From assembly GCF_013343005.1 (NCBI RefSeq), contig NZ_CP054491.1, positions 2,524,501 through 2,588,500 of the forward strand: a stretch of DNA of 64,000 nucleotides, given 5' to 3'. The translations under genes were made by a program, and so were the position numbers. Numbering within the stretch: position 1 is the stretch's first letter; the number at the start of each line of letters is the position of its first letter. The notes beneath the pieces were generated by a model. That model ran no database searches. It was given only the letters and a program-made list of their open reading frames with translations, and had not been told where the DNA came from. Below are positions 26,031 to 62,307 of the stretch, in pieces. The stretch is from Candidatus Reidiella endopervernicosa (GTDB lineage Bacteria; Pseudomonadota; Gammaproteobacteria; GCF-013343005).

Positions 26031-27069
26031 ATGTCTCACCAGCGTGAATCGACGCATAACAGCAACCAACATGCAATGCATTCTAAGATCGACCAACACT
26101 CCAGAAACATCCTCTTTTTTGGCGACCCACAGCTCGGTAGTCACCGAGGCTGGCAACGCTTCTTAACCTATTTTCCCAATGCAGAGCATTTAATCTGGAA
26201 CAAAGGCACACCCAAAGCACCACTTCACCAAGCACTACGTCAGAAGCACTGGGACATAACCATATCCTTCTATAATGACTTCATCTTCGAACATGATGAT
26301 TTTCCCTTTCTCGGACTCCCGCTCAATCTACATCCCGCGTTGCCGACCATCCGCGGTGTTGGTCACGACCACATACCATTGATAGAGGGCCATCCGGAGC
26401 ACGGCGGCACACTGCATTATCTTCAGCAACCCCCACGACTTTGGCAAAATGCCGCCGATGTGATCGATAACGGCAGGGTCATTCGCACTCGAAAGCGAGA
26501 GCTATCACCGCTCACGAACGCTGACCGCCATGGAGAGCGAAGTGAGGGCGGTTAGTCCCCGATAGTCGACGCCGTCTGCCTATTCGTAGTTGAGAGCGCG
26601 AGCGAACGACGGAGAAGATGCAGCAGCGGCTTTATGTCGGCGTAGAGTCACTGAGGGAGTTGTGTAGAGCCGCGAAGAGGTGATTACGCAACGAACGCAG
26701 GACGGTCGGGGCGCCGCAGGCATAAACGGTCGCGTGAAGTTTTGCTGTTTGCTTGGGCTTGGATGCCCAAAACAAACTTTCGCAAAATAGCGACTCCCCG
26801 GCTACGCTGAGATCCGAAGTGCCAACCAGGAGATCATGCTCGAGATGCTGAGTGAGCTGTGCGAGCAGCTGTTGTCGTGGGGATCGGTCGAATCTGTCCA
26901 ACAGGCGTTAGATGTAGAAGCGACGGAGAACGGGCACAGCTGGGGAAAACGTTATATCGGTCACTCTGAAAGAGACATTATCCTGAACACCCTCAGGTTG
27001 TCAGACCCGAATCACCGCGCCCTTGCTATCGGCAATCAAACAGAGCTTCCGCTACTTTCCAATGCCTGA
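26031..27069 (+). pseudogene. Formyltransferase-like gene interrupted by a 283-bp element
   Basis: The 5' part (26031-26518) encodes a formyltransferase-type N-terminal domain: ILFFGDPQLGSHRGWQRFL, then LPLNLHPALPTIRGVGHDHI and GGTLHYLQQ, the pattern Asn-x-His...Gly...His of the catalytic core seen in methionyl-tRNA and sugar N-formyltransferases. The 3' part (26802-27069) supplies YAEIRSANQEIMLEMLSEL and the C-terminus. Joining 26518 to 26802 gives one uninterrupted 251-residue protein (junction ELSPLTN-YAEIRSANQ). With the insert, translation stops 14 codons into the element. The 3' end overlaps the convergent ATP-grasp gene by 34 bases. A role in formylating an amino sugar is inferred from neighbours only. 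Confidence 0.75.
26519..26801 (-). mobile_element. Copy 1 of a 283-284 bp repeated element, in the formyltransferase gene
   Basis: Reads on the minus strand from CCGGGGAGTCGC to GGCGGTCAGCG, the same as four other copies in the window. No ORF of note, no terminal inverted repeat. The flanks show no target duplication: joining them restores the host frame exactly. Relative to the host gene the element lies in reverse. The two ends each fold: an outer GTCGC/GCGAC stem enclosing a TGGGC/GCCCA hairpin at one end, and CTAACCGCC/GGCGGTCAG at the other. Confidence 0.9.
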
Positions 27070-28000: not shown

Positions 28001-29782
28001 CTAGACCGACTGAACATGTCCAGGAATAGTGACACTGAAGAGCGCACCATCCTGATCCTGACTATTGCTGGCTATTACCTTTCCACCAAAACCCTCTTCA
28101 ATAAGCTTTTTAGCGATATATAGTCCCACACCAGACTCATCATTCTTCTTGTCACTCACCCCCAGATCGAAGACCCGTTCGACAGGTTTAACGGTAATAC
28201 CACCACCGTTATCGGAGATCACGAGCCGATAGTGACCATTGGCCGTCATTCGTGATCTCACAGCGATCCGTGGAGAGTCGGTGCCGCGTTCGATAAATAC
28301 GTCGCGGGCATTATTGAGAATCACCAGCACGGCATGGGCAAACTCAGCAGGATTGCCGTTAAGCTGCACACCATCATCAAAACTTGACGTAATCACAATG
28401 CCGTCGAGTTCGAAGGCATCACTTACGAAACTCAGCGCCTTGCGCACGATAGAATCTGGATAGAAGTCGATGCTCTCTCCACCCATTTTCATCAAACCGC
28501 TAAACACATCGACCGTACCGGCCATAAACTCGAGGAGATCGTGGCTCTTCGCTGTCGCCCTTCTCACGATTTTTTTACTATCTTCAGAGATAGGTTCATT
28601 GAACAACGTCTGCTCAAGCAGCATTACCTGCAGCCCCAGATCATTAAGCGGCTGTTTCCACTGGTGTGAGATGTGATTGACCGATTCACCGATATTGGCA
28701 AATTTCGACTTTACGTGAAGCAGTCGTAGTAGTTTTTTATTGAGTGATGAAAATCTCAGACTCAATATAATGGTCACCAGAAGAACCGAGAAAGCGACCG
28801 CCGCCACCCTGTAGGCGAGCTGATAATCCTGGCCGCCATTTTCTCTGTAGAGAAAACCATCCAGATCCACTTCACCACCCAACATTCCAAGCGTGGCATA
28901 GGTTTCAGCAATATGTTGCCAGCGACCATCCAGCATATAACCGAGTTCAATCAGCTCGGGGTGGATGAGTTTCTGCATCGACTCCATCTCGTAGACCAGC
29001 TCCTCCCTGCTCCTCGTGCTTGAGTACTCATTCAGAATCAGATCAATAATCTCTTCTGGGTGGTCCATTGCGTAACGCCATCCCTTGAGGCTGGCGTTAC
29101 GAAAACGCGCAGCGCGATCTGGATGGTTCAACAACTCATCATCGGTAGTGAAAAAGTTATCGCCATAAAAGTCGATACCGGCAGAACGAGGTGAATAGAT
29201 ATTAATATCCACCCCTCTTTGTCTGAGCGCATAGGGTTCGCTAGTGACATAGGCGGAGATGGCATCAACCTCACCGGCAATAAAACTTTCGAGATTGTGT
29301 TCACCTTCTCGAATGTCTGCCAGACCTCGATCAAGGCCTTCAATTTTAAGATAGGCGATCAATTCATCGGCCAGAGGTTCGATCATTAAACGTTTATTGA
29401 CCAGATCGTGAAGGCTCTGCAAAGCGCTATCACGCCGTGAGATAAGCACATATGGGGAGTGTTGAAAGAGAACCCCGAGCACCACAAGCGGTTTCCCCGC
29501 TTCACGCAGCAGAAGCAGACTGCTGCTCCCAACTCCATATTCGGCATCCCCCTTGAGGACCACCTCGGCCGTATTTATATCGGGACTCCCCTCTATAATT
29601 TCGACCTCCAGATTGGCATCACGGTAGTAGCCGAGCGCCTCGGCCGCGTAATAACCGGCGAATTGAAACTGGTGTGTCCACTTGAGCTGAAGCCTGACAC
29701 TGTCAGCAGCTGTTAGAGGGGTGACTATCAGTAAAGAGAGCAGTGCTACGAGTGAACGAGCTGTGAAGCCGATAGATTTCAC
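28001..29782 (-). CDS. Sensor histidine kinase with NMT1/THI5-like sensor domain
   Basis: A 593-residue two-component sensor. After a signal-like N-terminus (ARSLVALLSLLIVTPLTAAD) comes a periplasmic binding-protein domain of the SsuA/THI5 type (VRLQLKWTHQFQFAGYYAAEALGYYRD, about residues 30-310). A membrane span follows (AAVAFSVLLVTIILSLRF, about residue 330), then a kinase core with the H box SHQWKQPLNDLG and ATP-binding motifs VLNNARDVF, VISDNGGGI and GVGLYIAKKLIEEG. THI5-like domains usually bind pyrimidine- or sulfonate-like ligands; the ligand here is unknown. It overlaps the response regulator end by four bases. Confidence 0.9.
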   Translation of the reverse strand: MKSIGFTARSLVALLSLLIVTPLTAADSVRLQLKWTHQFQFAGYYAAEALGYYRDANLEVEIIEGSPDINTAEVVLKGDAEYGVGSSSLLLLREAGKPLVVLGVLFQHSPYVLISRRDSALQSLHDLVNKRLMIEPLADELIAYLKIEGLDRGLADIREGEHNLESFIAGEVDAISAYVTSEPYALRQRGVDINIYSPRSAGIDFYGDNFFTTDDELLNHPDRAARFRNASLKGWRYAMDHPEEIIDLILNEYSSTRSREELVYEMESMQKLIHPELIELGYMLDGRWQHIAETYATLGMLGGEVDLDGFLYRENGGQDYQLAYRVAAVAFSVLLVTIILSLRFSSLNKKLLRLLHVKSKFANIGESVNHISHQWKQPLNDLGLQVMLLEQTLFNEPISEDSKKIVRRATAKSHDLLEFMAGTVDVFSGLMKMGGESIDFYPDSIVRKALSFVSDAFELDGIVITSSFDDGVQLNGNPAEFAHAVLVILNNARDVFIERGTDSPRIAVRSRMTANGHYRLVISDNGGGITVKPVERVFDLGVSDKKNDESGVGLYIAKKLIEEGFGGKVIASNSQDQDGALFSVTIPGHVQSV

Positions 29783-30468
29783 GCCGACTTGGTCATCAAC
29801 ACCCAGCCTCGACCTGGATGGTTACAGATGACACTGTACTTCAGCTTCTTCCTCAACTCACCGAGCAGGTTCTTCAATGCAGACTCGGTCACCAGCTCAT
29901 TCGGCCAGATAGTTTTACTGATCTCCGGCTTGCCTATAACTCGATGGGTATTGGACAACAACAGCTCAAGCAGCTGGCACTCTTTACCACCGAGGCTAAC
30001 CTCTTCGCCATCGACGAAGAGCAGTTTGAAAAGTGGTTGGTAGGTGATCTCATCGGAGATTGCGATCTCTTTTATGAGTCGCTCCAAACGGGCGGCAACG
30101 CGTTTTAATACCGGCTCAAGCTTCTTAAAACTGAGGGGCTTAGTGATATAGCCATCAATCTGTAGATTGGCCGCCCGAAACAGATACTCTTTATCGGTAT
30201 AGGCACTGAGCACGATGACCGGAATCTCACAATTTCTGGCGCGGATTTTCTCAATCAATGACAGACCATCAATACCGGGCATCTCAATATCAGTAATGAC
30301 GACATCGAATGAATCAGTAGCAAACATCTCCAATGCCGATTCGGCATCGTAGGCGAGTGAGATCGATTTAAAGATGGTGGAGAAGAGCGCGTTCAGCTCT
30401 GCATGGATGTGGCGATTGTCATCTACCAGCAGCAGATTGAGATGTTTAAGAATTATGTTTTCGTTCAT
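29779..30468 (-). CDS. Response regulator with winged-helix output domain
   Basis: A 229-residue DNA-binding regulator. The receiver domain (residues 10-125) shows LLLVDDN (acidic pocket), VVITDIEMPGIDGLSLIEKI with the phospho-acceptor Asp, VLSAYTDK and ITKPLSF (conserved Lys). The C-terminal OmpR-like winged helix has LGGKECQLLELLLSNTHRVIG and LVTESALKNLLGELRKKL. It is the first gene of the pair and lies downstream of the giant autotransporter; whether it controls that gene is only a contextual guess. Confidence 0.9.
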   Translation of the reverse strand: MNENIILKHLNLLLVDDNRHIHAELNALFSTIFKSISLAYDAESALEMFATDSFDVVITDIEMPGIDGLSLIEKIRARNCEIPVIVLSAYTDKEYLFRAANLQIDGYITKPLSFKKLEPVLKRVAARLERLIKEIAISDEITYQPLFKLLFVDGEEVSLGGKECQLLELLLSNTHRVIGKPEISKTIWPNELVTESALKNLLGELRKKLKYSVICNHPGRGWVLMTKSA

Positions 30469-30809: not shown

Positions 30810-33800
30810 CTAGAAAGGCAGACTCAGCTTGATCATGCCACGTCTGGCATCGATTCGATCCGACCGAATCATGCCGTACTGAAGCTGTACGGTGTAGTTT
30901 TCGCGCGTCAGATAGTCGAGGCTCAGTGAGCTGTGGTAGGTGGTATCACCCAGATTAATCGCCACAATCATCGGATCAATTCCATCTGGCGCCCCCTCTA
31001 GACCCGCCCAGACCGATGTGGTTGGCTCATCGATATAGAACTGCGCCCCCAGATTGGCCGACAGGCGTAGTCTGTCGCCCGAGTTAAACTCCACCTCGTG
31101 ACCGAAATCGACCGCTGGCCTCACCCAACCGAGCGTCTCATCGTGCTCATAGAAGGTCAGACTAAGCGGACCCGCCCCTGTCTCATTGGCGGTCTCAGAT
31201 GTAACACGGGTCAGACCAATATCGAATTGGGGCCTGAAGTAGCTGCGCTCACTCTCAAAGTCGTAGGAGAGGCGCAGTAACGCACCCAGGGCATCGGTCT
31301 CACGCTCTACCACGGTGGCAAAGGGATCGACTACCACACCGGTACGCTCAGTATCGCTGCTGTTCCAGCCGTAGGAGAGTGCGGCGGCCAGCTTGGTCGG
31401 GCCATAACTGCGCTTCAGTGCCAGACCAAGATGTCGTGACACCCCTTCAGAGACCCACTGACCGTTGAAGCCCTTGGAGTGAATGCCTTCGTTTGAGAAG
31501 CCAACACCGACCGACCACTCATTCTCCAGTCGCTGCTGTGCACCCACGGCAACACGTTGGCTGGTGTGATCGATCTGCTTGTAGTCACCGTAGGCGCTGT
31601 GTACCGCCTCGCCCTTCTCAACCACACCCCAGCTGCAGCTCCCTTCACGATTGAAGCGATAGGCGCCATCCGTCTGTTTGCAGCTCATCATGCGCTGGCC
31701 AAACTCCTGGCTACCACTAATCAGTCCCACCTGCTGTGCACCGTAGAAGTCTGGCGACATCTGCGAGAGGGTATTGCGGTAGGTTTCCATGTTATCGGTA
31801 TAGAGCAGATTGACCACGGTATCGGCCAGTGCCTCAGTGCTGCCCGCCGCCTGTACCCGGTTAAAGTAGTCGCCTACCTCATTGAGATTGTCGCTCATGC
31901 CGCTTGGCGAGAAGTCGACCTCATAGTCGAGCACCGCACTATTGGCCGTTGGGTAGTTCACCTCATAGGTGATGACCATCGATGGCGCGGTAGTCAGGAA
32001 CATACCGCTGTCTGTCACGCCCTCTTCACCGGTAAAGATATCCTTCTGGAACACTCCACTCGGCACCAGCTGTGGGTTAAGCAGCCTCACATCGATCTCA
32101 CCCGCCAGATCGGCTGCACCACTCATCGCGATGTTGTCGATCAAATCGGTACCAAAATCGAGTTCCGCATAGGTGATTCCCGTTGCAGACTGGGTGAAGC
32201 TGCCACTCAGCGTGGTCGGCTGTGCCAATCCAGTATCACCGATATAGAGCAGACCATCATTGAGCATCAGGTTCTCCCAACCACCCAGCGAAAGGGTTGG
32301 CCCTGAGACAAAGATCGCATCCTCATGGTTATTGAAGCTGTTTGCACCACCACCCAGATCGAACTGACCGTAGATGAGTCCGTAGTTATCGATTCGGTCA
32401 TCACCCGTTGAGCCAAGCAACGTAGAAGCTGCCAGCTCATCGAAGGTCATCATCGAACCGTAGTTCGTTACCCGATTGGTAGCACCTCCGGAGAGCCAGA
32501 CACCCGCGCCATCCTCACCGGCATAGAGCAGCGACTCGGCTGCCAGGGTGATTTCGATATTACCGTTACCGTCGTTTGCCTCAGACTGGGCAAAGATCGC
32601 CACACCTTCACTACCACTGGCAATTACATTGCCGGTGAGATCGAGCGAGATTGCACCGGCCATACCACTACCACCAGCGCTGCCGGCATAGAGACGATCG
32701 ACCATCCCGCCACCACCGCCGAGACTCTGAGCCACAACCGCGATAGAGCGATCACCCGAGACATTGATCTCACCCGTTTGGGTGAAGGTAATATCGCCAC
32801 CATTGCCACTGTTATCGCTGTTGAACCGATAGACGATGTCGGCCTCATCCTGGTCAGTCAGCACCAGGCCGCCACCGCCGCCAATCGATTGCAGAACAAT
32901 GCCGTGTGAAAGCTCACCCTCGGTCCCGATTACACCACTATTGACCAGTGTGATAGCGCCGCCATTTCCGACCGAACTACCCGTGGCACCAAAGACAACC
33001 TCCAGATCTTCCACTCCAGTGGAACGGATGTCACCACCACCTGCACCGATGCTCTGCAGCACAATAGCTGGCGAGCGAATACCGGCCGTCACAACATCAC
33101 CGCTGTAGGTCAGGTCGATCACACCTCCATGATCACCTACACTGCCGTCGCCACCGAGTGTGATGGTGTTGTAGACAGGTGCTGCTGCCGGCGCTGCGCC
33201 CTGTGCCTTGTAACGTTTTGCGCGCGCTGGTGCTGCTGTCGTAGTCGTTGCGGGCAGATTGGCGACCACTGAGACCTGCCCACCTCCTCCTCCAATGCTT
33301 TGCACATTGATGCCATCGGAGAGATCACCGAGCGTGTAGACGTTACCTGTTCTGGTGGCAGAGACATTGCCACCGCCACTGTTACTGGAGTTACTGCTAC
33401 CGAGATTAATCGTCACATTGGCCTGAGCATCACCATCAGCACCCAATTCGATGGTGCCACTTCCGCCACCACCACCGATCGATTGCGTAATGCTGGCCGA
33501 GGCGTTCTCACCCCAGGAGATCAGATCACCGACATGACTCGCCTCAATGGCGCTGCCAATCGCATCCTCCACCCACTCGGTACCCAGGGTAATGGGAGTG
33601 GTGATAAAGGCTATCACCTCATCGACAAAACCGTCGTTGGGATCAAGCACGACGCTATCGTCACCATGCTCAGCAGCGTTCTGGCTTAGATCGAGGAACA
33701 GTTCAACATCACCACCGCCGCCGTTGACCGACTGGGCAAAGATCGCCTGACTGTTATCGCCCGTAACGGCGATAGTGCCGGATGAGTTAACCGTGACACT

Positions 33801-36800
33801 ACCCGCAACGCCGTTACTGCCATCTTTACTACCCAGCAGCAGAGGCAGCACATAGTCTGCAGCCGTCCAGAGTGAACGGGAGATGGCGATACCGGCAGAG
33901 CCGCCACCACCGCTAACCGTCTGGGCAAAGATACCGTAGCCATTATCACCATCAACGACGATCGAACCGGTGTGATCAATGGTGATATCGCCACTGTCAG
34001 CACCATCACCGCCCCAGCCTCCGATCGCACCATCAAGCAGCATCTGTTCCTGATTGAAACCGGAGCTGGCCGTTGCATAGGCACCACTACCGCCGCCGCC
34101 CCCCACACTCTGCGCAAAGATACCGTAGGAGCCCTCACCGGTGACCTCGATCGAGCCACTGTTATCGACCGAGACACTTCCAGCAGCATTACCGTCACCA
34201 CCGCTACCGCCGATGGCGAAAGCGATCTCATTGCTCTGCTCTTTAACAGCCCCCAGCACCGTATTAATCGAGGTTGCTGAGCCGCCATTGCCACCGCCAC
34301 CGCCGATGCTCTGCGCCACGATGCCATGCGCCGCTGCACCCGAGGTGAATATACCCCCTTCGTTTATCACACCGACATCGGTGCCGATGCCACCTGTACC
34401 ACCTGCACCACCCATGCTGAAACTGAGCGAACGGTTGATTGCCGATGCCGATGTGCCAGAGGTGTGGCTAAAGGTTGTTGTGGTACTACCGTTACCGCCA
34501 CCTCCTCCAACACTCATCGCCATAATGCCGTGCGAACCATCACCCGCCGTGATTATCAGCCCGGAGTTCTCCTCACCCTCTTCGACCAGATTAGAGACAT
34601 CAACACGACCGGCAGCAGCACCCGTGCCACCGCTGCCACCAATCGTCAAACCGATCTTGTTCGAGTTTTGATCACTGGTGCCGTTAGCCGTACGAACACT
34701 GCTAATGACATGGCTCGCATTACCACCACCGCCACCGCCACCGATGCTCTGAGCAAAGATCGCCACCGATTGATCATCGATGGTCTGGATCGCGCCACTA
34801 TTGGTCACCTCAACAGCACCAGAGACTGCGCCATCGCCACCATCTCCACCCATCGCCAATGAGAGCGAGTACTGGGTACTATCTGCCTTATCTGCGGTGG
34901 CCGTCAGCAGATTTGCGGTGATTCCGGCTATACCACCACCACCACCAAGACTCTGTGCCAGGATGCCGTGTGAGAGGGTGCCATCGGTCACCACGATACC
35001 GTTGTTATCAACCGTCACCTCACTGCTCGATGCGCCGGTACCACCCGCTCCACCCATGGTAATGTAGAGACTATTGGCCTGCGGCTGGGGACCACCCGCA
35101 CGGCCCATGCCACCGGTACCGCCACCACCGCCGATACTCTGACCCAGAATACCGATCGCCGCTTCACCGCTGGTCTGTACACCCGCCTCACTAACAATCG
35201 AGATCACCCCACCGATGCCGCCCTCGCCGCCCTCACCACCGAGCGAGAGTGCTGCCTTGGTCGACTTGAATGTCGCACCAGTCGCATTACCACCGTTACC
35301 ACCGCCACCACCAACACTCTGAGCAAAAACTGCGTGCGAACCATCGCCTTCAGTCACAACAGCACCTGAGGCATCAACATCGACGCGACCCGCTGCACCA
35401 CCAACACCACCCTCAAGGCCGATAGCGACACCGAAGCCGTGAATCGGTGCGTCGGACGATTTCGGTAGACTGCCCGAGACACTGGTCGATGAACTATTGC
35501 CACCACCGTTACCGACACTCTGTGCGAGGATGCCAAAGGCATCATCACCAAAGGTATGGACCGTACCGTCTGAGCTAACTGCCACATCAGAGCCAAAACC
35601 ACCTGTACCACCCATGCGACCGATCGAGATGCCGACCTTACCGCCACTCTGTTTCGAATAGGCGATATCCATACCGGTGTTGCCACCGCCACCACCGATG
35701 CTCTGCGCCAGGATGCCGGTCGAACCGACACCGTAGGTCTCGATGATGCCGACGTGATCGACCGTAACCTCCTCGCCGTTACCACCATCTCCCGTGGCTC
35801 CACCGATGGCGACGTTGAGACCGAGGTTCTCCTCACTCTTATCCGCATAGGCCAGCGCCAGATTGAAATTGGCGTTACCGCCACCACCGCCGATGCTCTG
35901 TGCCAGCACACCCTGACTAAAATCGGCCTGGGTCAGAATATTGCCGTAGTTATCGACATCGACACGCTCTCCATGACCCGCCTCGCCACCGGCACCGCCG
36001 ATTGCCAGCTGTATCGCATAGGCGGGTTTATCGGCTGAATCAGGCGTATCGGGATCGGGATCGGGATCTGGATCGGTGTGACCGTTGCGTCTGTTTAGCT
36101 CGTCGATCACGCTGTCGAAGTTTGAGAAGACGCTCTCATCGATACCGGGATAGGTCGGATGGGTGCGAGTGGAGCCACTATCAGGCGCAGGGTCCAGATC
36201 GGGGGCTCCCCCGCCACTGCCATCGGCAAAGGTTGCTGAGAGCATCAGGTTGATACCGGCATCACCACCGCCACCGCCGATACTGGAGGCCTCAATACCG
36301 ATACTGCCCTTACCGTTGGTTGAGATAAGACCAGCATCACTCTCAGCTGTACCACGTCTTACATCAACGGCATTAGCGTCACCACCACCGGCACCAAAGC
36401 CACCGACACCGATGCTAATCGGGGAACTCTTCTGCGCAACATTGGCGCTAATGTTAATTCCACCGGTACCGCCACCACCACCGAGACTCTGGGCGTAGAT
36501 ACCCCGGGCATACTCACCCACGGTAGTAATTGCACCGGTTGTCACTACTGTTACAAGACCGGCATCTGCGCCATCACCACCATGCCCGCCGAGACCGGCA
36601 ACCAGGGTGAAATCACTCGTATCTCCAGAGTTGGCCGAATCGGCCAAAGCGCCACCTGCGGCGACATTAATGCCACCATTACCACCGCCACCAGCGATAC
36701 TCTGGGCGAACAGACCGTGAGCCCAGTCACCCTCGGTGACTACCGTGCCCTCATGCCCAATCAGGACATCGCCACTCACCGCACCAATACCGCCAAAACC

Positions 36801-39800
36801 GCCGATGCCAACTGTCACGGCAGGTGTTGTACTCTCCTTGCTGATCGACATCGATCCGCTGATATTAAGCGCACCGTTACCACCGCCACCGCCGATACTC
36901 TGGGCGACAATCGCTGAAGAGCCACGCCCCCAGGATGAGGTATCAGCCACGGCATCGAGCGTCACGTCACCACCCGTGCCACCATCGCCACCCAGACCAC
37001 CCAGACCACCCAGACCAAAGACGATCGGTGCATCTGAGGTCATCCCTCCACTGATATTGATGCCACCATTACCGCCACCGCCACCAACGCTCTGTGCCAG
37101 CAGTGCCGAGTGTTCATCACCAAAGGAGTCGATCGTTTCACCACCAGTCACCGTCAGGTCGACACCACCTCCCGATCCACCATCACCACCAAAGCCACCA
37201 ACACCGACCACCAGTGCGTGGCCATCACCACCCTTGCTGTAGGAGACACCACCGCTGATGTTGATCGCACCGTTACCTCCACCACCACCGATACTCTGCG
37301 CGACGACACCGTGTGAGCCGCCAGCCGCTTTGGTGACGTAATGCGCAGGGATAACCTCTTCGGTCTCGGGATCGATCGACTCTGCCACCAGTTCTCGCGC
37401 TAGTGCCGAGACGGTTCCATCAAAGTCGAGATCAACACTGCCCGCATCACCACCACCCGCGCCGAAGCCGCCGATACCGATCGCAGCCGAACCACCGGTT
37501 CCAGTATTACTGAGCGAGAGTGCGCCACTGATATTGGTACCGCCGTTACCACCACCGCCACCGAGCGACTGCGCCATCACCCCGTGTGAATTGGCACCAC
37601 TGGTATTCACTACACCACTACTGTCGAGGGTGACATCACCAGCATCGCCACCACCACCACCAAAACCACCGATACCGACGGCGATTGAGGCACCGCTATT
37701 ACCCGTTATATTGGCCGTGCCTGAGATATTGGTGCCACCATTACCACCACCGCCACCGATGCTCTGTGCCACTACGGCACTGGCATCATCACCCGCAGTT
37801 GCGATAACGGGCCGCGCCTCGGTTGCCGTAACACGGCTGATGACACTGCCGGCATTACCACCATCACCACCAAATCCACCGATACCGACGCCGACGCCGA
37901 CCACGCCACCATTACTCTTGCTGAACGACGCCGCACCTGTGACGCTATTACCACCGGCACCACCACCGCCACCAACACTCTGCGCCAGGATTGCGCTTGC
38001 ACGATCACCGCTGGTGACAACACCGCCGGTCACAGTGCTATCAACAGCACCCGCCTGACCACCACCGCCACCAAAACCACCGATACCTACAGCAACCGCA
38101 CCGCTACCGGTACTGACCGCTGATATCGAAGCGGAGACAGTATTACCACCGCTACCGCCACCACCGCCGATGCTCTGCACCAGCACGCCCATGGCATCAT
38201 CACCTCCGGTTTGAACATATCCGGTCACACTACTGAGCAGATCACCCGAGAGCCCACCCGAGCCGCCCGAGCCGCCGATACCAACCGTGATGGCACCACT
38301 GCCGCTGCTTGCTCCGGAGAGCGCACCAGCCACCGACATACCGCCGTTACCACCGCCACCACCGATACTCTGCGCAACCACGCCCGAGGCGCTATTACCC
38401 TGAGTCGTCACGCTACCCTCAACCGTTGAGGTCACACTATTTGATGCACCACCACTACCACCGCTGCCGCCCAGACCTACCGATACCGATCCACTACCGG
38501 TACTCGTACCAGAGATAGTGCCGCTTACAGAGAGACCACCATTACCGCCTCCGCCACCCACTGACTGTGAGAGCACCGCAACGGAGTTATCACCTGAAGT
38601 CGCGATAGTGCCGGTGACGCTGGTATCGACGATACCGCCCACTCCACCCGTTCCACCCGAACCACCAATTGAGACGGCGACACTGCCGCTACCGGTTGCC
38701 GCGCCCGAGAGTCCGGCTGAGATGTCATAACCACCGTTACCGCCACCACCGCCGATGCTCTGCGCGATCACGGCACCAGAGTTGTCACCCTCAGTGGTGA
38801 CATCATTAGTCACGCTGACGGTCACCGTTGAACCATCACCCCCCGATCCACCGCTACCTCCCAGACCGACACTGACGGTGCCACTACCGGTACCCGCACC
38901 AGAGCCCGAACCGGAGATGTTGTAACCACCACTACCGCCACCACCACCGACCGACTGTGCCAGCAGGCCGACGGACATCTCGCCGAGGGTATGGATATTC
39001 CCACTGGTGGTTACATCGACAGTTCCGGCCGAACTACCCGAGCCACCTGAGCCACCCAGACCAACGCTGACCGAACCACTGCCGACACCGGCGGCCGCCG
39101 CACTACCAGAGATGTTGTAACCTCCGCTACCGCCGCCACCACCGATGCTCTGTGCGATCAGCGCTGCGGAGCGATCGCCCTCGGTATAGAGCGTACCCTC
39201 AGTCACTACCGAGACATCACCTCCTGCACCGCCGGATGATCCCTGGCCACCAAGCCCTACCGATACGGCACCACTGCCGGTACCTGAGAATGCAGAGCTG
39301 CCGGAGATGTTGTAACCACCACTACCGCCACCGACGCTCTGTACCAGCACCGCTACCGAATCGTCTCCATAGGTGGAGAGATCGGCCAGGATATCGAGTG
39401 CGTTGACCTCACCACCGTCACCGCCGCCACTGCCACTGCCACCCAGTCCGACACTCACCGCGCCACTACCAGTACCAGCAGCTGCACCACTGGCGGTGAT
39501 TGAATAACCACCGTTACCACCGCCACCACCAACACTCTGCGCAACAAAGGCGTTCGAGTTACTGCCACTGGTAGAGATACCGTTACCATCATCATCAACG
39601 CCGCTGACATTGACGCTGACATTGACGCTGCCACCGTCACCGGCCGCACCACCGCTACCACCCAGCCCTACCGATACGGCACCACTACCAGAGCCAGAAC
39701 CCGACAGCGTGACGGTAATTGAACCGCCGCCGTTACCGCCACCACCGCCGACGCTCTGTACCAAAATGCCGGTAGCGTTAGAACCTGAGGTTGAGAGGTC

Positions 39801-42800
39801 GCCACTGTAGTCGGCAGTAACACTATTGCCATCACCACCCGTGCCACCCGAACCACCCACACCCACGGAGACCGAACCACTGCCGACACCGGCACCTGCC
39901 GCTCCGGCAGAGATGGTCAGGCCAGCGTTACCGCCACTGCCGCCGACCGACTGAATAACCGCACCATCCGAACCGTCACCCTCGGTCTGAATATCGACCG
40001 TGAGCTGCGCATTGACCGTGCCACCGCTATCGCCATCACCGGCACTACCTCCAACCCCGGCCGCAACCGCACCACTACCCGCACCGGCACCCGCTGCCGC
40101 ACCGCTTACGGTCATACCACCGTTGCCGCCACTGCCACCGACACTCTGAATCACTATCGCATCAGACTGATCGCCACGGGTGTGTGACTGCCCATCAAGC
40201 GTTACATCGACGTTGCCACCGACACCCCCGGTACCCGCATCACCACCGACCGCAACTGAGACAGCACCACTACCCGCCGCCGCAAGGCTGGCAGAGGCAG
40301 AGACCGTGGTTCCACCATTGCCACCGCCACCACCGACGCTCTGTGCAACAAAACCGTGTAGAGATCTCCTCCGGGAGTCGCTATTTTTGCGAAAGTTTGT
40401 TTTGGGCATCCAAGCCCAAGCAAACAGCAAAACTTCACGCGACCGTTTATGCCTGCGGCGCCCCGACGATCCTGCGTTCGTTGCGTAATCACCTCTTCGC
40501 GGCTCTACACAACTCCCTCAGTGACTCTACGCCGACATAAAGCCGCTGCTGCATCTTCTCCGTCGTTCGCTCGCGCTCTCAACTACGAATATACAGACGG
40601 CGTCGACTATCGGGGACTAACCGCCCTCACTTCGCTCTCCATGGCGGTCAGCGGAGGTGTTGATATTCAGGGTGCTATCAACATCGACTATGCCGCCGTC
40701 ACCACCACTACCACCCTCTCCACCCAGCGCCACCGACACGGAACCACCCGAGACACCTAACTGAGTCGCCGATGAGACGGTCAGCCCTGCATTACCACCA
40801 CCGCCACCAACACTCTGCAGCAATACACCCGTCGCACTATCACCACTGGTGGTGACTGCTCCGCCGGTACCATCGAGTTCAACTCGACCGCCATCACCAC
40901 CACTACCGCCATCACCACCCAGTGCGACTGAGACCGCTGCGAAGGTACCAACGGTTGCCTGAACCGTGGTGCCGCCATTACCACCGCCACCACCAACACT
41001 CTGTGCCAACACACCCACTGAACGGTCGCCGAGTGTGGTCAAAATTGAGGGAATCTGACTACCGCCTGAGTCAAAGCTATCCATGGTGACGGTAACCTCG
41101 GCACCGTCACCACCCGAGGCACCTGAACCACCGATTGCCAGTCCACCGATAACGGAACCGGAGTAGCTCGATCCACCGTTACCGCCACCGCCACCGATTG
41201 CTTGAGCAACGATGCCAAAGGCGTCGTTGCCCGCCGTTGAGATGATGCCACCGTGACTCACCGTGACATGGTCGGCATCACCACCCGAACCACCACTACC
41301 ACCAATCGTGATCAGGCCGCCGCTGCTACCACCATCACCACCGCCACCACCAATACTCTGGGCGAAAATTGCGGTCGATTTATTGCCGAGGGTTGAGATC
41401 GATCCATCATTATCGATGGTGACCGCATTGGCGTTGCTGGTTGAACCACCGGAGCCACCGATCGCCACCAGTCCACCTGAACTACCACCGGCACCACCAC
41501 CACCGCCGATGCTCTGGGCAAAGATGCCACGCGCCAAGTCACCTTCAGTACTCAATGAACCACTATTGCTCACCGAGACCACACCGCCCGTGCCACCGGC
41601 AGTGCTGCCGCCACCCAGTGCAACCAGTCCACCCGATGACCCACCACTACCACCACCACCACCGATACTCTGGGCAAAGATGGCATCGGCACCACTCCCT
41701 TCAGTGGTGATCGAACCCGTTGCGGTGTTGGTCACCGTCACCGTGCCACCATTACCACCACTGGAACCGCCACCACCCAGCGCAACCAGACCACCCGAAC
41801 CACCGCCCGAGCCACCGCCGCCGCCGATACTCTGCGCAAAGATGCCGCGTGCATCGACGCCTGCGATTGAGAGCACACCGCTGTTGGTGACGGTCACGGC
41901 CGCACCGTTACCACCGGAGCTTCCACTACCGCCCAGTGAGACCAATCCACCACCGGCATTGGCCGAACCGCCACCACCACCGATGCTCTGTGCCTGAACC
42001 GCGTGTGCACTAATACCCAGGGTTGTCACCAGGCTACCGGCATCATTGGTTATCTCGACACTACCGGCGTTATCACCCGTTCCGGCCGAGGCACCGAATG
42101 AAGCGATACCACCCGCACCACCACCATCACCACCGCCGCCACCGATGCTCTGAGCAAACACACCGACTGAGTAATCCCCATCGGTATAGATCTTCGCCGT
42201 TGAGGTATTTGTTATAGAAACTGCACCACCGGTTCCACCGGTCGTGGCATCACCACCAAAAGCGACGATGCCGCCTGCATCACCACCGTCACCACCAGTG
42301 CCACCGATGCTCTGACCAAAGACGCCGTGTGCACCCTCGCCACGCGTGTGAACCGTACCGAGGTTGGTAATCGTTACCGAACCACCATTACCGCCATCGG
42401 CACCACTACCACCAGCCCCGACGATGCCCCAACTATCACCACCACTTCCCGCGGCACCACCAACACTCAGGCCGTAGATTCCGTGTGAACCCTCGCCAAA
42501 GGTATTGATATCGGCCTCATTACGGATATTTACACTACCGCCATCACGCGCCTCACCACCTGAACCACCACCAGCGAAGATATAGCCGTTACCACCATCA
42601 CCCGCGATGCCACTCTGGCTATAGGCAAAGATTCCCTCAGCATGATCGGCCGTGGTTGACACGTCGGTCTTATTTGTCAGCGAAACGCTTCCGCCATTGC
42701 CGGCATTGCCACCTGAATAACCATCAAAGACACCATAGGCGTCACCACCGTCACCACCATCACCACCGACGCTGGCAACAGTAATTCCGGGGGTCTCCGC

Positions 42801-43511
42801 AGATGTGGAATTGATCGTGCCATGCGTCGTCTCCACGACGCGATTGATGGCCGGACCGGTCGCTCCATCGTCACCATCCGAACCCGCCTTACCGATCGTG
42901 AAGCAGCCAAAAAAACAGATCTCAATGCCGTAGGCGTTACCACCATCATCACCGTCTCTGCCGGTTGAAACCTCATCGATGACACCCGAGGTGGCCACCG
43001 GCGCAACAAACTCCCCAGCACCCGCTCCGCCGCCACCGCCACCGTCGACGACATAGCTGGTGTACACGTCCTTAGACGTTGCGACCTCATCGACATCAGC
43101 CGGATCGAGTTTTAAGAAGACGCTAACAACATGACCCGCACCGTTCGTACCCGTAGAAACAATCGTGTAGATATTACTGCCGCCAATCTCCTGAACGGTT
43201 TCTCCAACTGTTGTCTTGGTCAGAAGAAAACCACCATCACTGGTCACCACATACTGAATCTCGCCGGAGCTGGCAGGAATCAGTTCGACAACGGTGGTAT
43301 CGAGTCCGGTCACTGGATTGAGAACGGTGTCACCTACGTTACTCGCAGGTGTGGGTGGAACAGCCGCTGATGCAGAAACACTAAAAAGCAGCAGAAACAG
43401 CACAACCGCTGTTAACAGCAGGTATCGAATAGAAGAGGTATTGGGATGATTAATTCGAGAATATGCTGAGCGAGCGCAACCACTAGACGCAGGGTTCGTC
43501 GTGTTATTCAC
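30810..43511 (-). pseudogene. Giant glycine-rich autotransporter adhesin, interrupted by a 283-bp element
   Basis: The 5' part (43511-40654, GTG start, ribosome site AAGGA) has an extended signal peptide (YLLLTAVVLFLLLFSVSASAAV). Dozens of repeats of about 50-70 residues follow, built around (V/I)xAQS(V/I)GGGGGxGG with intervening SGxGSVSVGLGGxGGxGG and T-GD motifs; such repeats form beta-solenoid stalks. The 3' part (40370-30810) continues the repeats and ends in an autotransporter beta-barrel of about 300 residues, terminating in Phe (IKLSLPF). The two parts together would be about 4,140 codons. The element at 40371-40653 truncates the product after residue 953, so the truncated protein would lack its barrel. 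A further one-base lesion is needed to restore frame after excision. It is probably inactive at present; function as a surface adhesin is inferred. Confidence 0.85.
40371..40653 (+). mobile_element. Copy 2 of the repeated element, in the giant autotransporter gene
   Basis: 283 bp, nearly identical to the other copies but with one fewer G in the first G-run (CCGGGAG instead of CCGGGGAG). It lies in reverse relative to the host gene. The flanks join at codons for NINTS-GD, which rebuilds the T-x-GD motif of the host repeats, so insertion took place without target duplication. A one-base deletion some ten bases into the 3' flank shifts the frame before GFVAQSVGG. Confidence 0.9.
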
Positions 43512-43768: not shown

Positions 43769-45331
43769 TTATTGAACCAGTGATGTACGATCCCAGTTCA
43801 GCTGAAGCTGTAATAGATCAGCTTTAAATGCACCACCAAAGCTCATCATCTTGCCACCCATGAATGCCAGGGAGAGTGATTCGTTCAGCTGAACGATGAG
43901 ACCTAGCTGGGCCTGATGGATAAATCCATCATCGACATCCATATCCCCTCCTCCACTGACACCGACATCGTAACCCGCACTCAATCCAATACGATCAAGC
44001 AGCTTATAGTCGGACTCGTAAACAACACCAAACAGCCCCTCTGCAAATGAGCCAACATTTCCGCCATAGGCCCACTGTGTACTACCACGTAATCTTAGCG
44101 ACTGGCTAACCGGCATACTCAATTCAAGCCCGATGAGATGCAGCGCATCGTCATAGGCAGCTCCCTCATCGTTGAGAGAGTGATCGTCCGGTAGATAGGT
44201 TTTTTGCGTCAAGGCCGCACGCCAGTCGATTCGACTGAACTGATCAGCATCAAATAGTGCTGCATATTCTGCTGCAGTTACTGGTATTGCCGCCTGTCAA
44301 CCAATTCCGATCTCATAGGCATCCGCCTTAATTTCACCCTCGAGTGCAGCCATGCGACCTGCCATCGCTTTCACGTACCAGTGTTCGGAGAGTTCGAGAC
44401 TTAGCCCCGTCATCAGGTGTACCGTCAATCCACCACCAGTATCGATACGACCATCGCCAGCCAATCCCAGCAGTGCCTTACTCTCCCAATTGAGCCCAGC
44501 AAACAACGGAACCCTGGCACCGAGTCCTGCGGAGATGGAGGCATAACCATCTGAGCCGCCGCCCCCGGCACCGTAGAGCTCAACGCTGTTATAGAAAAAA
44601 TGCGAGAACTGGTGATCAAACTGGATACCGAGCAGATTGAAGTCGGTATTCTCCCCTGCACCACCGGTGTAGATACCACTACGGTGCATTGGGTGATCAT
44701 CATCGGTCGCGTAGTGCATCAGGCTCGGCATGATGCGATAGCGTTCCAGCTCACCCTGATAGGGAGTGACCGATTCACTGTTATCGAAGATCTGTCGCCA
44801 ACTGAACGAGTCGAGTCGCAGCCCTGCGACCAGATGTGTATCTGACGACTCATTTGCTGTGGTGTTGGGAAAATCGGTGTGGGCCACACCCATACGCCAG
44901 TAGGGACCACCCAGTTGAAACTCAAGCATGGCGTGCGCTCGGGTGATCATGCCACCACCAGGAAAGGTCAGTCCGGAACCGCCGCCGCCACCAAAGTGAT
45001 AACCGAGATCGAGCTTGAGTCGACGGCTTAATTCAAAGCGATTGCCGAGCGTCGCGCCCATGGTAAAGAAGCCCCCCTCCTCACCCACGGCACCACCGTA
45101 GCCACCAAATCCGAGGTAGCTGCTGGGCAGTGATTTGAACGGCATCAGGTCGTAGTGGAACCCGACCACCCCCATCTCATCGCCAGCCGGTAGTGGGATC
45201 ACCTCATAGGAGCTGCGCCAGGAGATCGGCATCGACTTATAACTGAGCATTTCTGCCAACGCACTACATGTTGTGAACAACAGAGGCAATGCGCTCAAGC
45301 AGAGCACCACCTTGGTAATATTTAATCTCAT
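43769..45331 (-). pseudogene. Two-repeat outer-membrane beta-barrel protein split by an in-frame TGA
   Basis: The 5' frame (45331-44297, 344 residues) has a signal peptide (VVLCLSALPLLFTTCSALAE) and many alternating beta strands. It ends in TGA at 44297-44299. Translation continues in the same frame without further stop for 175 codons to 43769. The second half repeats the first: the end of repeat 1, FKAD-like IKADAYEIGIG then TGA, aligns with FKADLLQLQLNW at the end of repeat 2. The stop therefore sits exactly where Trp (TGG) is expected. The intact protein would be about 520 residues. A real nonsense mutation, a readthrough stop or a sequencing error are all possible. Possible partner of the neighbouring autotransporter. 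Confidence 0.7.
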
Positions 45332-45367
45332 GGTCCCGTATGAAATCTGATGGGTTGAACCGTAAAA

Positions 45368-48300
45368 CTAAGGCCCAACCACCGCACGGGTGAACTGTGC
45401 AATCGAGGCTCGTGCATTGTCGTAGTCACGCAACCACTGGAAGCCGGTATAGGCCTCGGCACCGGTAGTAATCACCTTGAACCCCTTATCGACCATCTTG
45501 ACCCCTTCTGCAACACGTTCACCCGCAACGGCACCGCCCTTGATCGTGGCGATCACCACCAGTCCCTGACCGATCACATCAAAACCCAGATCGATATCGG
45601 CCTTGTAGAGTTCAAGGTCGAGCTGTTGGTTGGTCACCTGACGTTTGAATTCAGCAATCTCTGCGTAGCGATTCCTGATCAACAGATTCGAACCACCACT
45701 TTCGGATATCTTTCCGTTGCCCCATGCATTTGCCGCTGCCGTGATCGCAGTTTGTGCCTGCTTGCGATCCTCACCCATCAAGCCGGTCACAAGCTGACCC
45801 TTCCACGGTTTTCCGGCGATATCGACAACACCCTTCATCAGGATCTTCTTCAACCAGTACCAGGCAACATGTTTATGGTGGGCGACGGTGCCACGCATCA
45901 CCGACACGAAGTTCTTCTTCAGCTGTGCCATCACGAACTGTGCAACACGACCCTTAATCGCCTTGCCACCCATCAATGCAAAGTTCCCCGCCTTGAAGCC
46001 GGCCGACTTAGACATCTCATCAATCTTGAGTTTTTTATCATCGAACAGATCAATATTGGCCAGGTTGGCGAGGCCATCCATCACGTTAACCAGCGAATCG
46101 GCGAACTGTTCGGCCGCATGGTTGGCAAGATCATCACCTTCTCGCAGGGCTGCCATCAGCAGGCCGACGCGGACCAACTGATTGCGATGCAGCTCCACCT
46201 CCGCATTATTGGCGGCCGCTGCAATCTTCATCGGGAAGTAGGTAGAGAGTAGCTGTCTGATCGCACCAGCCTGATAGCCGTAGTGTTTTTTCTCCATCTC
46301 ACGTACCGCGGCACGGGCATTGGTGACGAAGTAATCGGTATCCTTGTCGTATGCGCTCACTTTGAGCGGTTCGGAGAGCACAAACTCGGCAGGACCAACA
46401 CTCTTGGCAGGATCACCATAGATCAGTTCAAACTGACCATCCGCGTTACTCTGCGCCTCCACCAACACCCGTTTCTCTTTATCGACAAGGCGAATAAAGA
46501 GACCATTGATCGGCAGCACCTCCGGCATCACCACTGTCCCGTATACGCCCTTCCCGACGGGATAGACCACCTGCCCCTTCACAACGCCATTGTTGATATC
46601 GGCCAGCGCGATGGGAATCGATTGTTGTGGGGCGTAGCCATTACGTTCAAGCTGCAGTTCAAGCTCGGCAAGGCCGAGCAGACCCGCCTTCACCTGCACC
46701 ACAAGCTCTTGCTTCTTGAGCTTGGCACGTGCGGTAAAGCGCACCTGTGGCGCCCACTTGCCCGCCTGCATCACCTCCTGTGTTATTCGTGGTGGAAGAT
46801 ACTCCACCAGCATACGACCCTCACCATCAGTAACCTGACCATTGGGGAAACGCAGCTCACCCTTTTGCGGCAACCGCTCCCAGAACGAGAGATCGACCCT
46901 CTCTCCGACAACCGCTTCACCCTCGCCATCGCTGAAACGCACTTCCATTGAGACAGCCGTCGCACCGTCGAGCACGATACCCTGCTCAAACGTGGCACCG
47001 CTACGCACCAGCTCAAAGCTTGGTGATAGCTCCTGTTTTTTGACATGGATCGTCTCCGGTGCTGGTGCACCTCCACCGCCACCGCGCAGTGAGAAGCGCG
47101 CAATACGCATATCCATGTAGCTGACGTAGATCGAACCGCGGTGGAACCAGAAATTTTTCGACCAGGCCTTGTCACGTGAACTTGTAATCGCCTTTCCCGT
47201 CAGCAGATCGATCTCTTTGAGTTTACGGCCCGCCCTGGGGCGACTGTAACGGAAATGCTGCGATTCGAGGCCCAGCGAGGCGACATAACTGAAGTCACGC
47301 AGTACCCGTTTCGCGTGGAAGTAGTAACCACGCCGATCCCCAGCCAATAACGATCGTCGGGTACCACTGGCGAGCGTCTTGTCATCCATTGAAGTCAGTT
47401 TGTTACCGGCAGGCAGCTTTCTGAGCAGCGTAACCTTGCCATCACCCGGTGCAACACTGATAACGGCCTTGAGCCAGTTCTTTCCGGTTACCTTCACGTG
47501 CAGTGTGCCGTCGGAAGCCTGAACCATCCCCTCTGCATGGGTATAGTCACTACCGACACCAGCCACCTGCGCCACGATCTCGAGTTTGCTCTCTGTAGGG
47601 GAGAACCTCGCTACTACCAGTCGGCTGCCCGATACACCCTTGGGTGGCCGCGCCTCGGCGATGAAGTAGACCCAGTCACGGATCACGATGGGCGGGTTGT
47701 GGTAGATCCACTTGTTGATCTCCTGCCAGACGGGGGGTTGATCGCGATCCATCTCCGGTTTGGCATCGGCATTGAGATCAGCAGCCGTTCTGAAGCGGCG
47801 GCTATAGCTGAACGCACCATGCGACTGGATAAACGCTCCGCTCTTGTTGTACTCGATAATATTGCCGAGCCAGATGGCGTAGAGATGGCCCTGACTATCA
47901 ACAAAGAGCGGGCGAGGATAGCCACGAGAACCATGTTTTGGATCGTCCTTGCCCAGATCGTACTTCGCCGAGAGCCGTCCACTGGGCGAGAAGCGAGCCA
48001 GCACCTTCTTCCTGTCGTGGCTGAGCTGTCCATAGATATTGCCCTGCCGATCGGTCATAAAGGCGATAAAATTCTGCTTGGGATCCTTGATCGGTGACTG
48101 TAGACGCCCTGCCGGCTCAATATCGTAGACAAAGGCGTAGAAGGAGAGGCGCTTGGAGAAGGAACCAACCTGCGGGAAGTTGGCATCCTGAAAGGTGACG
48201 GTCACCTCATTCATACCGCTTTTGACCGGGATTACTGCCTTTTTCCTACTCAATCCTCCCACATCACGACTCAGCTGGCCGGTGGCACTCATGCGTATAT

Positions 48301-48583
48301 CGTAATGTTTTCCCTCAGGCAGTTTACCGAAATACTCATGGACCGCACCGATATCGCATCGCACCACCACCTCCGGTGTTGTACCCTCGGAAACGGCAAC
48401 CACCACCGCCTCACGATACTCGATCAGTTCCGGTTTTCGATTGAAAACCCGCACCATGCCTGTCTCATCGACATCCTGGATAATGCAGTCGCGGAAGAAA
48501 TCCTCCTTGGCGTAAACGGAACTGCTCGAAACAACGATCAGTAAGGGAACTAGCAACAGATATCGAGATAGATTAATTATCAT
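45368..48583 (-). CDS. Large secreted protein with beta-propeller-like N-terminal part, function unknown
   Basis: A 1,071-residue exported protein (signal YLLLVPLLIVVSSSSVYAKE). Residues about 140-510 contain repeated units like ITDRQGNIYGQLSHD, ARFSPSGRL, FVDSQGHLYAIWLGN and RFSPTESKLEIVAQV, which suggest a beta-propeller. The middle has Ig or carboxypeptidase-regulatory-like strands (NGLFIRLVDKEKRVLVEAQSNADGQFEL). The C-terminal 300 residues are helical with hydrophobic stretches (GFDVIGQGLVVIATIKGGAVAGERV). I do not recognise a family. It begins four bases inside the preceding gene's stop (ATGA overlap), so it belongs to the same operon as the upstream exported proteins. Confidence 0.8.
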   Translation of the reverse strand: MIINLSRYLLLVPLLIVVSSSSVYAKEDFFRDCIIQDVDETGMVRVFNRKPELIEYREAVVVAVSEGTTPEVVVRCDIGAVHEYFGKLPEGKHYDIRMSATGQLSRDVGGLSRKKAVIPVKSGMNEVTVTFQDANFPQVGSFSKRLSFYAFVYDIEPAGRLQSPIKDPKQNFIAFMTDRQGNIYGQLSHDRKKVLARFSPSGRLSAKYDLGKDDPKHGSRGYPRPLFVDSQGHLYAIWLGNIIEYNKSGAFIQSHGAFSYSRRFRTAADLNADAKPEMDRDQPPVWQEINKWIYHNPPIVIRDWVYFIAEARPPKGVSGSRLVVARFSPTESKLEIVAQVAGVGSDYTHAEGMVQASDGTLHVKVTGKNWLKAVISVAPGDGKVTLLRKLPAGNKLTSMDDKTLASGTRRSLLAGDRRGYYFHAKRVLRDFSYVASLGLESQHFRYSRPRAGRKLKEIDLLTGKAITSSRDKAWSKNFWFHRGSIYVSYMDMRIARFSLRGGGGGAPAPETIHVKKQELSPSFELVRSGATFEQGIVLDGATAVSMEVRFSDGEGEAVVGERVDLSFWERLPQKGELRFPNGQVTDGEGRMLVEYLPPRITQEVMQAGKWAPQVRFTARAKLKKQELVVQVKAGLLGLAELELQLERNGYAPQQSIPIALADINNGVVKGQVVYPVGKGVYGTVVMPEVLPINGLFIRLVDKEKRVLVEAQSNADGQFELIYGDPAKSVGPAEFVLSEPLKVSAYDKDTDYFVTNARAAVREMEKKHYGYQAGAIRQLLSTYFPMKIAAAANNAEVELHRNQLVRVGLLMAALREGDDLANHAAEQFADSLVNVMDGLANLANIDLFDDKKLKIDEMSKSAGFKAGNFALMGGKAIKGRVAQFVMAQLKKNFVSVMRGTVAHHKHVAWYWLKKILMKGVVDIAGKPWKGQLVTGLMGEDRKQAQTAITAAANAWGNGKISESGGSNLLIRNRYAEIAEFKRQVTNQQLDLELYKADIDLGFDVIGQGLVVIATIKGGAVAGERVAEGVKMVDKGFKVITTGAEAYTGFQWLRDYDNARASIAQFTRAVVGP

Positions 48584-48915
48584 TTCTTATCGATCTCCTC
48601 AATTATCTGTTCCAGCTCATCGCCTGCCTGCTCCAGCGTATCGCCGAGCGATTCAAACAGTCCCGCCTGACGGATCTTGAATTTCACCCGCTTGAGCCGT
48701 TTTTTACCCACTGAGAGATCGACCCACGCCTTACCGACTGGCAGCGTCTCCTCAGCCGTTTTCAGTTTGAGCCAGAATGCCACTTCAGAGCGCCCCGATT
48801 TCAACTTCAGCGTGGTGCGTTTCACCGCTCCCTTACGTCCGGGCAGATACCAGTGGGCAATGATCTCTCCACCCTCAGGCGCCTCAATTTTGCCCACAGC
48901 ACCAATCGGCGCCAT
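48580..48915 (-). CDS. Small protein or displaced C-terminal domain of the preceding gene
   Basis: From the ATG at 48915 (MAPIGAVGKIEAPEGGE) the frame gives 111 residues, without a signal peptide. The content (GGEIIAHWYLPGRKGAVKRTTLKLKSGRSEVAFWLKLK) is of the same kind as the domain in the upstream protein (GEKLTAKWYRLD...FSFTPDKAGWRQGLYRVVIEG). The two frames overlap by 32 bases and are offset by one base. I therefore think this is the second domain of one protein, separated by a frameshift near 48900-48920, where ATGCATG occurs. A separate translationally coupled gene is the alternative. Ends ELEQIIEEIDKK. Confidence 0.55.
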   Translation of the reverse strand: MAPIGAVGKIEAPEGGEIIAHWYLPGRKGAVKRTTLKLKSGRSEVAFWLKLKTAEETLPVGKAWVDLSVGKKRLKRVKFKIRQAGLFESLGDTLEQAGDELEQIIEEIDKK

Positions 48916-62023: not shown

Positions 62024-62307
62024 CCGGGGAGTCGCTATTTTGCGAAAGTTTGTTTTGGGCATCCAAGCCCAAGCAAACAGCAAAACTTAACGCGACCGTT
62101 TATGCCTTCGGCGCCCCGACCGTCCTGCGTACGTTGCGTAATCACCTCTTCGCGGCTCTACACAACTCCCTCAGTGACTCTACGCCGACATAAAGCCGCT
62201 GCTGCATCTTCTTCGTCGTCCGCTCGCGCTCTCAACTACGAATATGCGAGACGGCGTCGACTATCGCGGACTAACCGCCTTCGCTTCGCTATCCATGGCG
62301 GTCAGCG
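62024..62307 (+). mobile_element. Copy 4 of the repeated element, first insertion in hypF
   Basis: 284 bp, in the same direction as the host gene, unlike copies 1-3. It is the most divergent copy, with scattered substitutions (for example GTACGTTGCG, TATCGCGGAC, four T instead of five after GTCGCTA). Flanks join as CTCGGCAT + CATGTTG, giving Leu-Gly-Ile-Met-Leu, the expected HypF sequence, with no duplicated bases. Confidence 0.9.

What the first reader, a model, noticed from the sequence alone, without database searches (positions are those of the whole stretch)
30810..43511. Giant, about 4,140-codon glycine-rich autotransporter with dozens of AQS(V/I)GGGGG repeats
The signal peptide, very long repeat region and C-terminal barrel make this one of the larger surface proteins expected in a bacterium. 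Repeat units vary in spacers while the VAQSVGGGGGNGG core is fixed, suggesting a long solenoid. It is interrupted after about 950 codons by the element and has an additional frame lesion near 40350.
Basis: partly seen in the sequence, partly recalled or inferred. Interest (0 to 1): 0.65.

Follow-up and report, generated by a model that had tools for sequence, protein, structure and literature searches.

The report
Giant surface protein split by repeat
A bacterium carries the gene for a very large glycine-rich protein that would build a long rod on its own surface, but a short repeated mobile element that litters this genome has landed inside the gene and cut it in two.

Summary
On the minus strand, 43511..40654 (952 codons, signal peptide, 9 repeat motifs) and 40372..30813 (about 3,186 codons, 32 motifs, PF03797 barrel, terminal Phe) are the halves of one type Va autotransporter gene of about 4,140 codons. 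An orthologue from another gammaproteobacterium (43% identity over the last 596 residues) is one uninterrupted 5,132-residue frame with the same order of repeat spacings. The interruption is a sharp-ended 281-bp element present about 360 times in this 3.45-Mb genome. No frame is open through it, so the gene as sequenced should make no surface protein. The stated core is not fixed: the exact string occurs twice; the looser QS(V/I/L)GGGG occurs 36 times. AlphaFold2 predicts a beta-solenoid with extended glycine tracts; a solved polyproline-II-bundle antifreeze protein is the best structural match (Z 12.6), but only two of five models are confident. Autotransporters of this sort are known; this is a large new member, broken here. 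The element itself, a covarying structured family without an Rfam match, is the more surprising by-product.

The parts
40654..43511 (-). 5' part of the autotransporter gene, 952 codons, GTG start at 43511 with a purine-rich ribosome-binding-like stretch just upstream
43362..43511 (-). signal peptide with long n-region, about 49-50 residues, cleavage expected after ...VSASA (read by eye; no predictor was run)
   Evidence: orthologue has a comparable N-terminus and conserved sequence after it
40654..42350 (-). first part of the repeat region: 52-54-residue units, then the start of the 65-residue array; 9 motifs
40373..40653 (-). inserted 281-bp repeat element (one of about 360 genomic copies); stops in all three frames
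30810..40372 (-). 3' part of the autotransporter gene, about 3,186 codons plus stop; open throughout
32691..40372 (-). second part of the repeat region: 65-residue units, then longer irregular units; 32 motifs
30873..31604 (-). C-terminal autotransporter beta-barrel, PF03797; protein ends in Phe at the stop of 30810

Best explanation
This is the gene of a giant type Va autotransporter, recently split. Intact, it would work in the usual way: Sec export through the signal peptide, insertion of the C-terminal barrel in the outer membrane, and passage of about 3,800 residues of mostly glycine-rich repeats to the surface, where they fold into a long beta-solenoid rod that most likely serves in adhesion, aggregation or as a surface coat. 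In the sequenced genome a copy of a 281-bp, highly repeated, structured mobile element sits early in the 65-residue array. Translation from the 5' half stops 12 codons inside the element, so the barrel is never joined to the signal peptide, and the 3' half has no signal peptide of its own. The gene is therefore expected to be non-functional here. Shown: gene anatomy, barrel, intact orthologue, element, its copy number, stops. Predicted: solenoid. Inferred: function, recent date, loss of function, and a further one-base slip next to the element (about 65% likely).
For: Two open frames at the stated place. PF03797 E 1.2e-16. One orthologue, 43% identical over 596 aa, E 5e-152, open as one 5,132-aa frame with the same order of motif spacings: 52-54 series, about 120, 61-62, a 65 series, 137, 185-197, 65, 128-129, 60, 62, and 55, 54 at the end. 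Element ends sharp in 30 aligned copies; 364 left ends and 359 right ends at up to one mismatch, controls 0 and 2. Stops in every frame of the element: 7, 3, 3. Both halves otherwise open over about 4,140 codons, and the scored element copies are 95-100% identical, which points to a recent insertion. Solenoid: AlphaFold2 mean pLDDT 82.4, pTM 0.74 for 291 residues with 19 rows; autotransporter passengers among the best solved matches, Vag8 Z 9.8 rmsd 1.9 over 118 residues and Fap2 Z 8.7 rmsd 3.1 over 124. Slip: in the repeat just after the element position -9 is Arg and -6 Leu, while among the 40 other repeats 37 have Gly at -9 and 39 Ser or Ala at -6.
Against: Only one orthologue was found (2 of 369 class genomes with a match, own included; 1 locus in genome contigs). 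No empty site from the same species exists in what was searched. Only two of the five AlphaFold2 models are confident (82, 74, 55, 43, 42), Foldseek gave no confident match (best E 8e-4, probability 0.10), and the barrel region folded badly (pLDDT 35, 2-row alignment). Function was not tested. If the element's footprint is taken as 282 bp rather than 281, the two outer frames are already in register, so the extra slip is not certain.
Confidence: 0.82

Rival explanations
1. A reversible on/off switch: the element leaves precisely in some cells, so that the giant protein is made by a part of the population.
For: The element has uniform sharp ends and near-identical copies, so it was recently mobile; with a 282-bp footprint the two outer frames are in register.
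Against: The repeat after the junction departs from the consensus as if a base had also been lost. No empty site was seen; only this one genome of its family and order was held by the search. Excision was not tested.
Confidence: 0.06
2. The structured element is removed from the messenger RNA, like a self-splicing intron, and the protein is whole.
For: The family has a conserved, covarying fold on the coding strand.
Against: No Rfam family, introns included, reaches its gathering score on the element or on six relatives. No splicing evidence of any kind; the fold suits a mobile element equally well.
Confidence: 0.02
3. Two genes by design: a secreted 5' protein and a separate barrel protein, as in two-partner secretion.
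For: Two long frames are present.
Against: The 3' frame begins inside the element, with no signal peptide; the orthologue is a single frame; the stop of the 5' frame comes from the element.
Confidence: 0.02
4. Assembly or sequencing artefact: the element, the slip or both are misassembled.
For: Repeats with about 360 copies are a classic cause of misassembly; the slip is one base.
Against: The element has its usual sharp ends and its usual base at -4 (C, as in 54 of 56 copies), and the flanks are two halves of one gene in the right order, as a real insertion would leave them.
Confidence: 0.06

Closest known systems
Type Va (classical) autotransporters, PF03797 barrel (e.g. Vag8, Fap2 as structural matches)
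   Same: Signal peptide, repeat-built passenger predicted as beta-solenoid, C-terminal PF03797 barrel, terminal Phe, one polypeptide in the orthologue.
   Different: Glycine 24-28% over the pieces, passenger of about 3,800 residues built mostly of 52-65-residue glycine-tract units; here split by an element.
Glycine-rich autotransporter on Sinorhizobium meliloti pSymB (WQO80285.1, CP140921.1, 2,288 aa)
   Same: 27% identical over the C-terminal 596 residues; 16 motifs of the same kind; annotated only as autotransporter outer membrane beta-barrel domain-containing protein.
   Different: About half the length, fewer and less regular units.
Springtail antifreeze protein, nine polyproline-II helices (7jjv)
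   Same: GGX-rich tracts; 125 of 126 residues align to the predicted repeat block at rmsd 2.4, Z 12.6, 27% identity. Gly-Gly correlation is highest at lag 3 (1.43-1.56 times expectation) and rises again at lag 6.
   Different: No homology claimed; the repeat block also holds beta strands and is a tandem surface protein, not a small ice binder.
MITEs such as ERIC, Correia, Chunjie (for the element only)
   Same: Short, non-coding, many copies; Chunjie-1 is reported to disrupt one copy of a phosphate uptake operon (PMC10969869, passages).
   Different: No ordinary terminal inverted repeats and no target duplication seen; conserved multi-helix fold with compensatory changes.

Membership tests
Type Va autotransporter | N-terminal Sec signal peptide | tested here: met
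   Read from the sequence: hydrophobic segment and small-residue cleavage site; no predictor available
Type Va autotransporter | C-terminal beta-barrel PF03797, ending in an aromatic residue | tested here: met
   E 1.2e-16, 61.6 bits over cut-off 26, profile 12-255 of 255; last residue Phe
Type Va autotransporter | Passenger is a right-handed beta-helix | tested here: inconclusive
   Repeat block predicted as beta-solenoid, pLDDT 82 but only 2 of 5 models confident; handedness not measured; barrel model failed
Type Va autotransporter | Signal peptide, passenger and barrel in one polypeptide | tested here: not met
   Not in this genome: split by the element. Met in the orthologue L037. So: gene of such a protein, now broken
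Polyproline-II / polyglycine-II bundle proteins | GGX tracts packed as extended left-handed helices | tested here: inconclusive
   Best VIA-align row, lag-3 Gly periodicity and 16 GGX runs of three or more in the two pieces (5 + 11) against shuffle means of about 0.3 per piece; no coordinates could be measured
MITE (the element) | Terminal inverted repeats and target-site duplication | tested here: not met
   56 copies: fixed ends, C at -4 in 54 of 56, right flank CGG in 29 of 56; no duplication seen by eye
MITE (the element) | Short, non-coding, many copies, moved in trans | tested here: inconclusive
   281 bp, about 360 copies, stops in all frames; no mobiliser identified

The most novel reading that the evidence does not exclude
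The passenger is a hybrid fold not yet described for autotransporters in what I searched: each 65-residue unit combines beta-solenoid strands with polyglycine-II helices formed by the poly-Gly and GGX tracts, stacked some 40 to 57 times into a rigid rod; and the element that broke it belongs to an uncatalogued family of mobile, structured RNA-like elements spread over gammaproteobacteria and amplified to about 360 copies here.
Probability: 0.3. Interest if true: 0.66.

Novelty: new member of a known kind. Interest (0 to 1): 0.45.

Why it matters
Glycine-tract autotransporters sit in gammaproteobacteria and on rhizobial megaplasmids under one generic name, with no Pfam or NCBIfam match for the passenger pieces tested. 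A defined 65-residue unit with a confident prediction makes their structure testable on a small fragment. The case also shows a very abundant short element breaking a giant gene, and gives a sharp handle on that element: exact ends, a near-fixed base four positions upstream, and a covarying fold.

Tried and rejected
Whole-protein Pfam and NCBIfam scans of the two long pieces gave nothing; the shorter C-terminal piece gave PF03797 in Pfam, so the empty result was a matter of length and composition. Family and order searches held only the window's own genome: four of twelve searches spent without gain. The barrel model from a two-row alignment was useless and was not searched. Sequence search of solved structures gave 0 matches for both alignments. 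tblastn of the repeat block against plasmids gave no match, low-complexity filter on. Looking for an autonomous form of the element: six stretches around unmatched end sites were fetched and hold ordinary, truncated or diverged copies. Rfam at a permissive threshold gave only one irrelevant weak row below its gathering score. Viral contigs: two element patterns matched 5 and 1 stretches; blastn of the element showed 17-18-base matches in the five and a 47-base match at 94% in the sixth. The element has no match among phage records. Paper searches; no listing named this protein family by its repeat. Of the papers I saw passages of PMC2275737, PMC13243192, PMC8409303 and PMC10969869; the rest only as search listings. 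Looking for other interrupted genes among 34 copies by open frames alone was not conclusive.

Full report
What is there. The window is G000:C1:2524501-2588500 of a 3.447-Mb single-contig genome. The upstream one starts with GTG at 43511 behind a purine-rich stretch and codes a signal peptide of about 49 residues (read by eye), a unique region and glycine-rich repeats. The downstream one runs to 30810 and ends in a PF03797 barrel with a terminal Phe.

Repeats. The motif Q[ST][VILM]G[GA]x[GS] occurs 9 times in the 5' piece and 32 times in the 3' piece; 500 shuffles of the pooled residues gave at most 2. Spacings are 52-54 residues in the first array, then 119, 62, and then mostly 65. The core varies: QS[VIL]GGGG 36 times, AQS[VI]GGGGG 24 times, the exact 13-mer of the finding twice. 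Units are 53-64% identical in DNA among four regular ones and no long tandem unit is reported, so the array is old rather than freshly duplicated.

Orthologue. Of 369 class genomes searched, 2 have a match to the last 596 residues, the own genome and G249. The same contig is found as WFMW01000057.1, a gammaproteobacterial MAG. Its gene is one frame of 5,132 codons with 57 motifs. Outside the two arrays the spacings correspond closely; the middle 65-residue array is longer in the orthologue. More distant relatives of the C-terminal part, under 60% identity, lie on 79 of 72,556 plasmid records, 49 of them Sinorhizobium. The single one that I examined has 2,288 residues and 16 motifs.

Interruption. 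The 281 bp at 40373..40653 have uniform ends in 30 aligned copies. Up to one mismatch, 364 left and 359 right ends occur in the genome, against 0 and 2 for the reversed patterns: about 101 kb, or 2.9% of the genome (my arithmetic). All three frames of the element contain stops. Translation from the 5' half therefore ends 12 codons into it.

The frame question. Whether the halves are in register depends on one base at the element's right end. By position the frames agree if the footprint is 282 bp. But the repeat that follows the element has Arg at -9 and Leu at -6, where 37 of the 40 other repeats have Gly and 39 have Ser or Ala, and a neighbouring frame reads Gly-Asp close after the junction. 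I take a one-base slip close to the element as somewhat more likely than not. A sequencing error cannot be excluded.

Fold. A 291-residue block of regular units with 18 other blocks from the window and the orthologue (alignment A2) gave mean pLDDT 82.4 and pTM 0.74; the five models had 82, 74, 55, 43 and 42. The poly-Gly tracts and the strands around them are the confident part; the hairpins between are weaker. Foldseek alone found nothing confident. Re-aligned, the best of 106 chains was the springtail polyproline-II antifreeze protein 7jjv (Z 12.6, rmsd 2.4, 125 residues), followed by Vag8 (9.8), a phage tail protein (9.1) and Fap2 (8.7). The tool warns that Z below about 13 for repeats may mean only a common arrangement. 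Sequence supports a threefold register: glycine correlation is highest at lag 3 in all three stretches tested, only a little above lag 1, and rises again at lag 6; GGX runs of three or more occur 5 and 11 times in the two pieces against shuffle means near 0.3, and 27 times in the orthologue against 1.0. PPII bundles of GGX tracts are reviewed in PMC8409303 and PMC13243192 (passages); neither contains the word autotransporter in its main text.

The element as a family. In the class sample 32 of 369 genomes (own included) have a match at E <= 1e-3, with at most two candidates scored per genome; 14 other genomes have matches of 130 bp or more over the left half. Eleven rows (two own copies, nine relatives from nine genomes) fold into 67 consensus pairs, 24 with changes on both sides, against 12.7 (sd 2.0) in shuffles, 0 of 500 reaching it; 95.6% of cells pair, against 34-53% when slid. 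One measure, further pair types, does not exceed shuffles (341 of 500). Two rows (L043, L044) are nearly identical, so they are not independent. No Rfam family reaches its gathering score on the window copies or in six of the nine relatives searched. A 16-base core at up to one mismatch counts 341 in the own genome and 0 to 15 in 16 others, so the burst is specific to this lineage among those looked at. ERIC with up to 711 copies (PMC10969869, passages) shows that such numbers are not unheard of.

Verdict. An ordinary kind of protein at an unusual size, confirmed and broken. The predicted hybrid fold and the element deserve more attention than the size.

Noticed in passing
window 26519-26798 (+), 40373-40653 (-), 53516-53802 (-), 62027-62307 (-), 62366-62646 (-): Five copies of the 281-bp element in 64 kb; about 360 in the genome; covarying fold, base C at -4 in 54 of 56 copies, right flank CGG in 29 of 56; no Rfam match at gathering.
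   Followed up: partly
L054 (G000:C1:781100-782050) and L055 (G000:C1:903000-903900): Head-to-tail pairs of the element 283 bp apart: a second copy begins directly at the right end of the first.
   Followed up: no
L043 and L044 (genomes G015 and G035, different families): Nearly identical copies of the element in two genomes of different families, which suggests recent horizontal spread or contamination.
   Followed up: no
CP157006.1 and NZ_CP091425.1 (Methylomonas and Methylobacter plasmids): Only the right third of the element is matched, with 8 places on one plasmid: the right end may exist with other left ends.
   Followed up: no
window 28001-30468 (-): Directly downstream of the giant gene: a sensor kinase with an NMT1/THI5-like substrate-binding domain and a response regulator.
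   Followed up: no
window 43769-49954 (-): Five successive frames upstream of the giant gene without any Pfam match at 1e-3, among them one of 1,071 residues with a signal-peptide-like start.
   Followed up: no
L004, L022, L018, L014 and others: Several other element copies have open frames of 150 codons or more on both sides on one strand; whether genes are interrupted there was not tested.
   Followed up: no
window 26031-26555 (+): A 174-residue frame runs into the element copy at 26519 and ends inside it; its end may be altered by the insertion.
   Followed up: no
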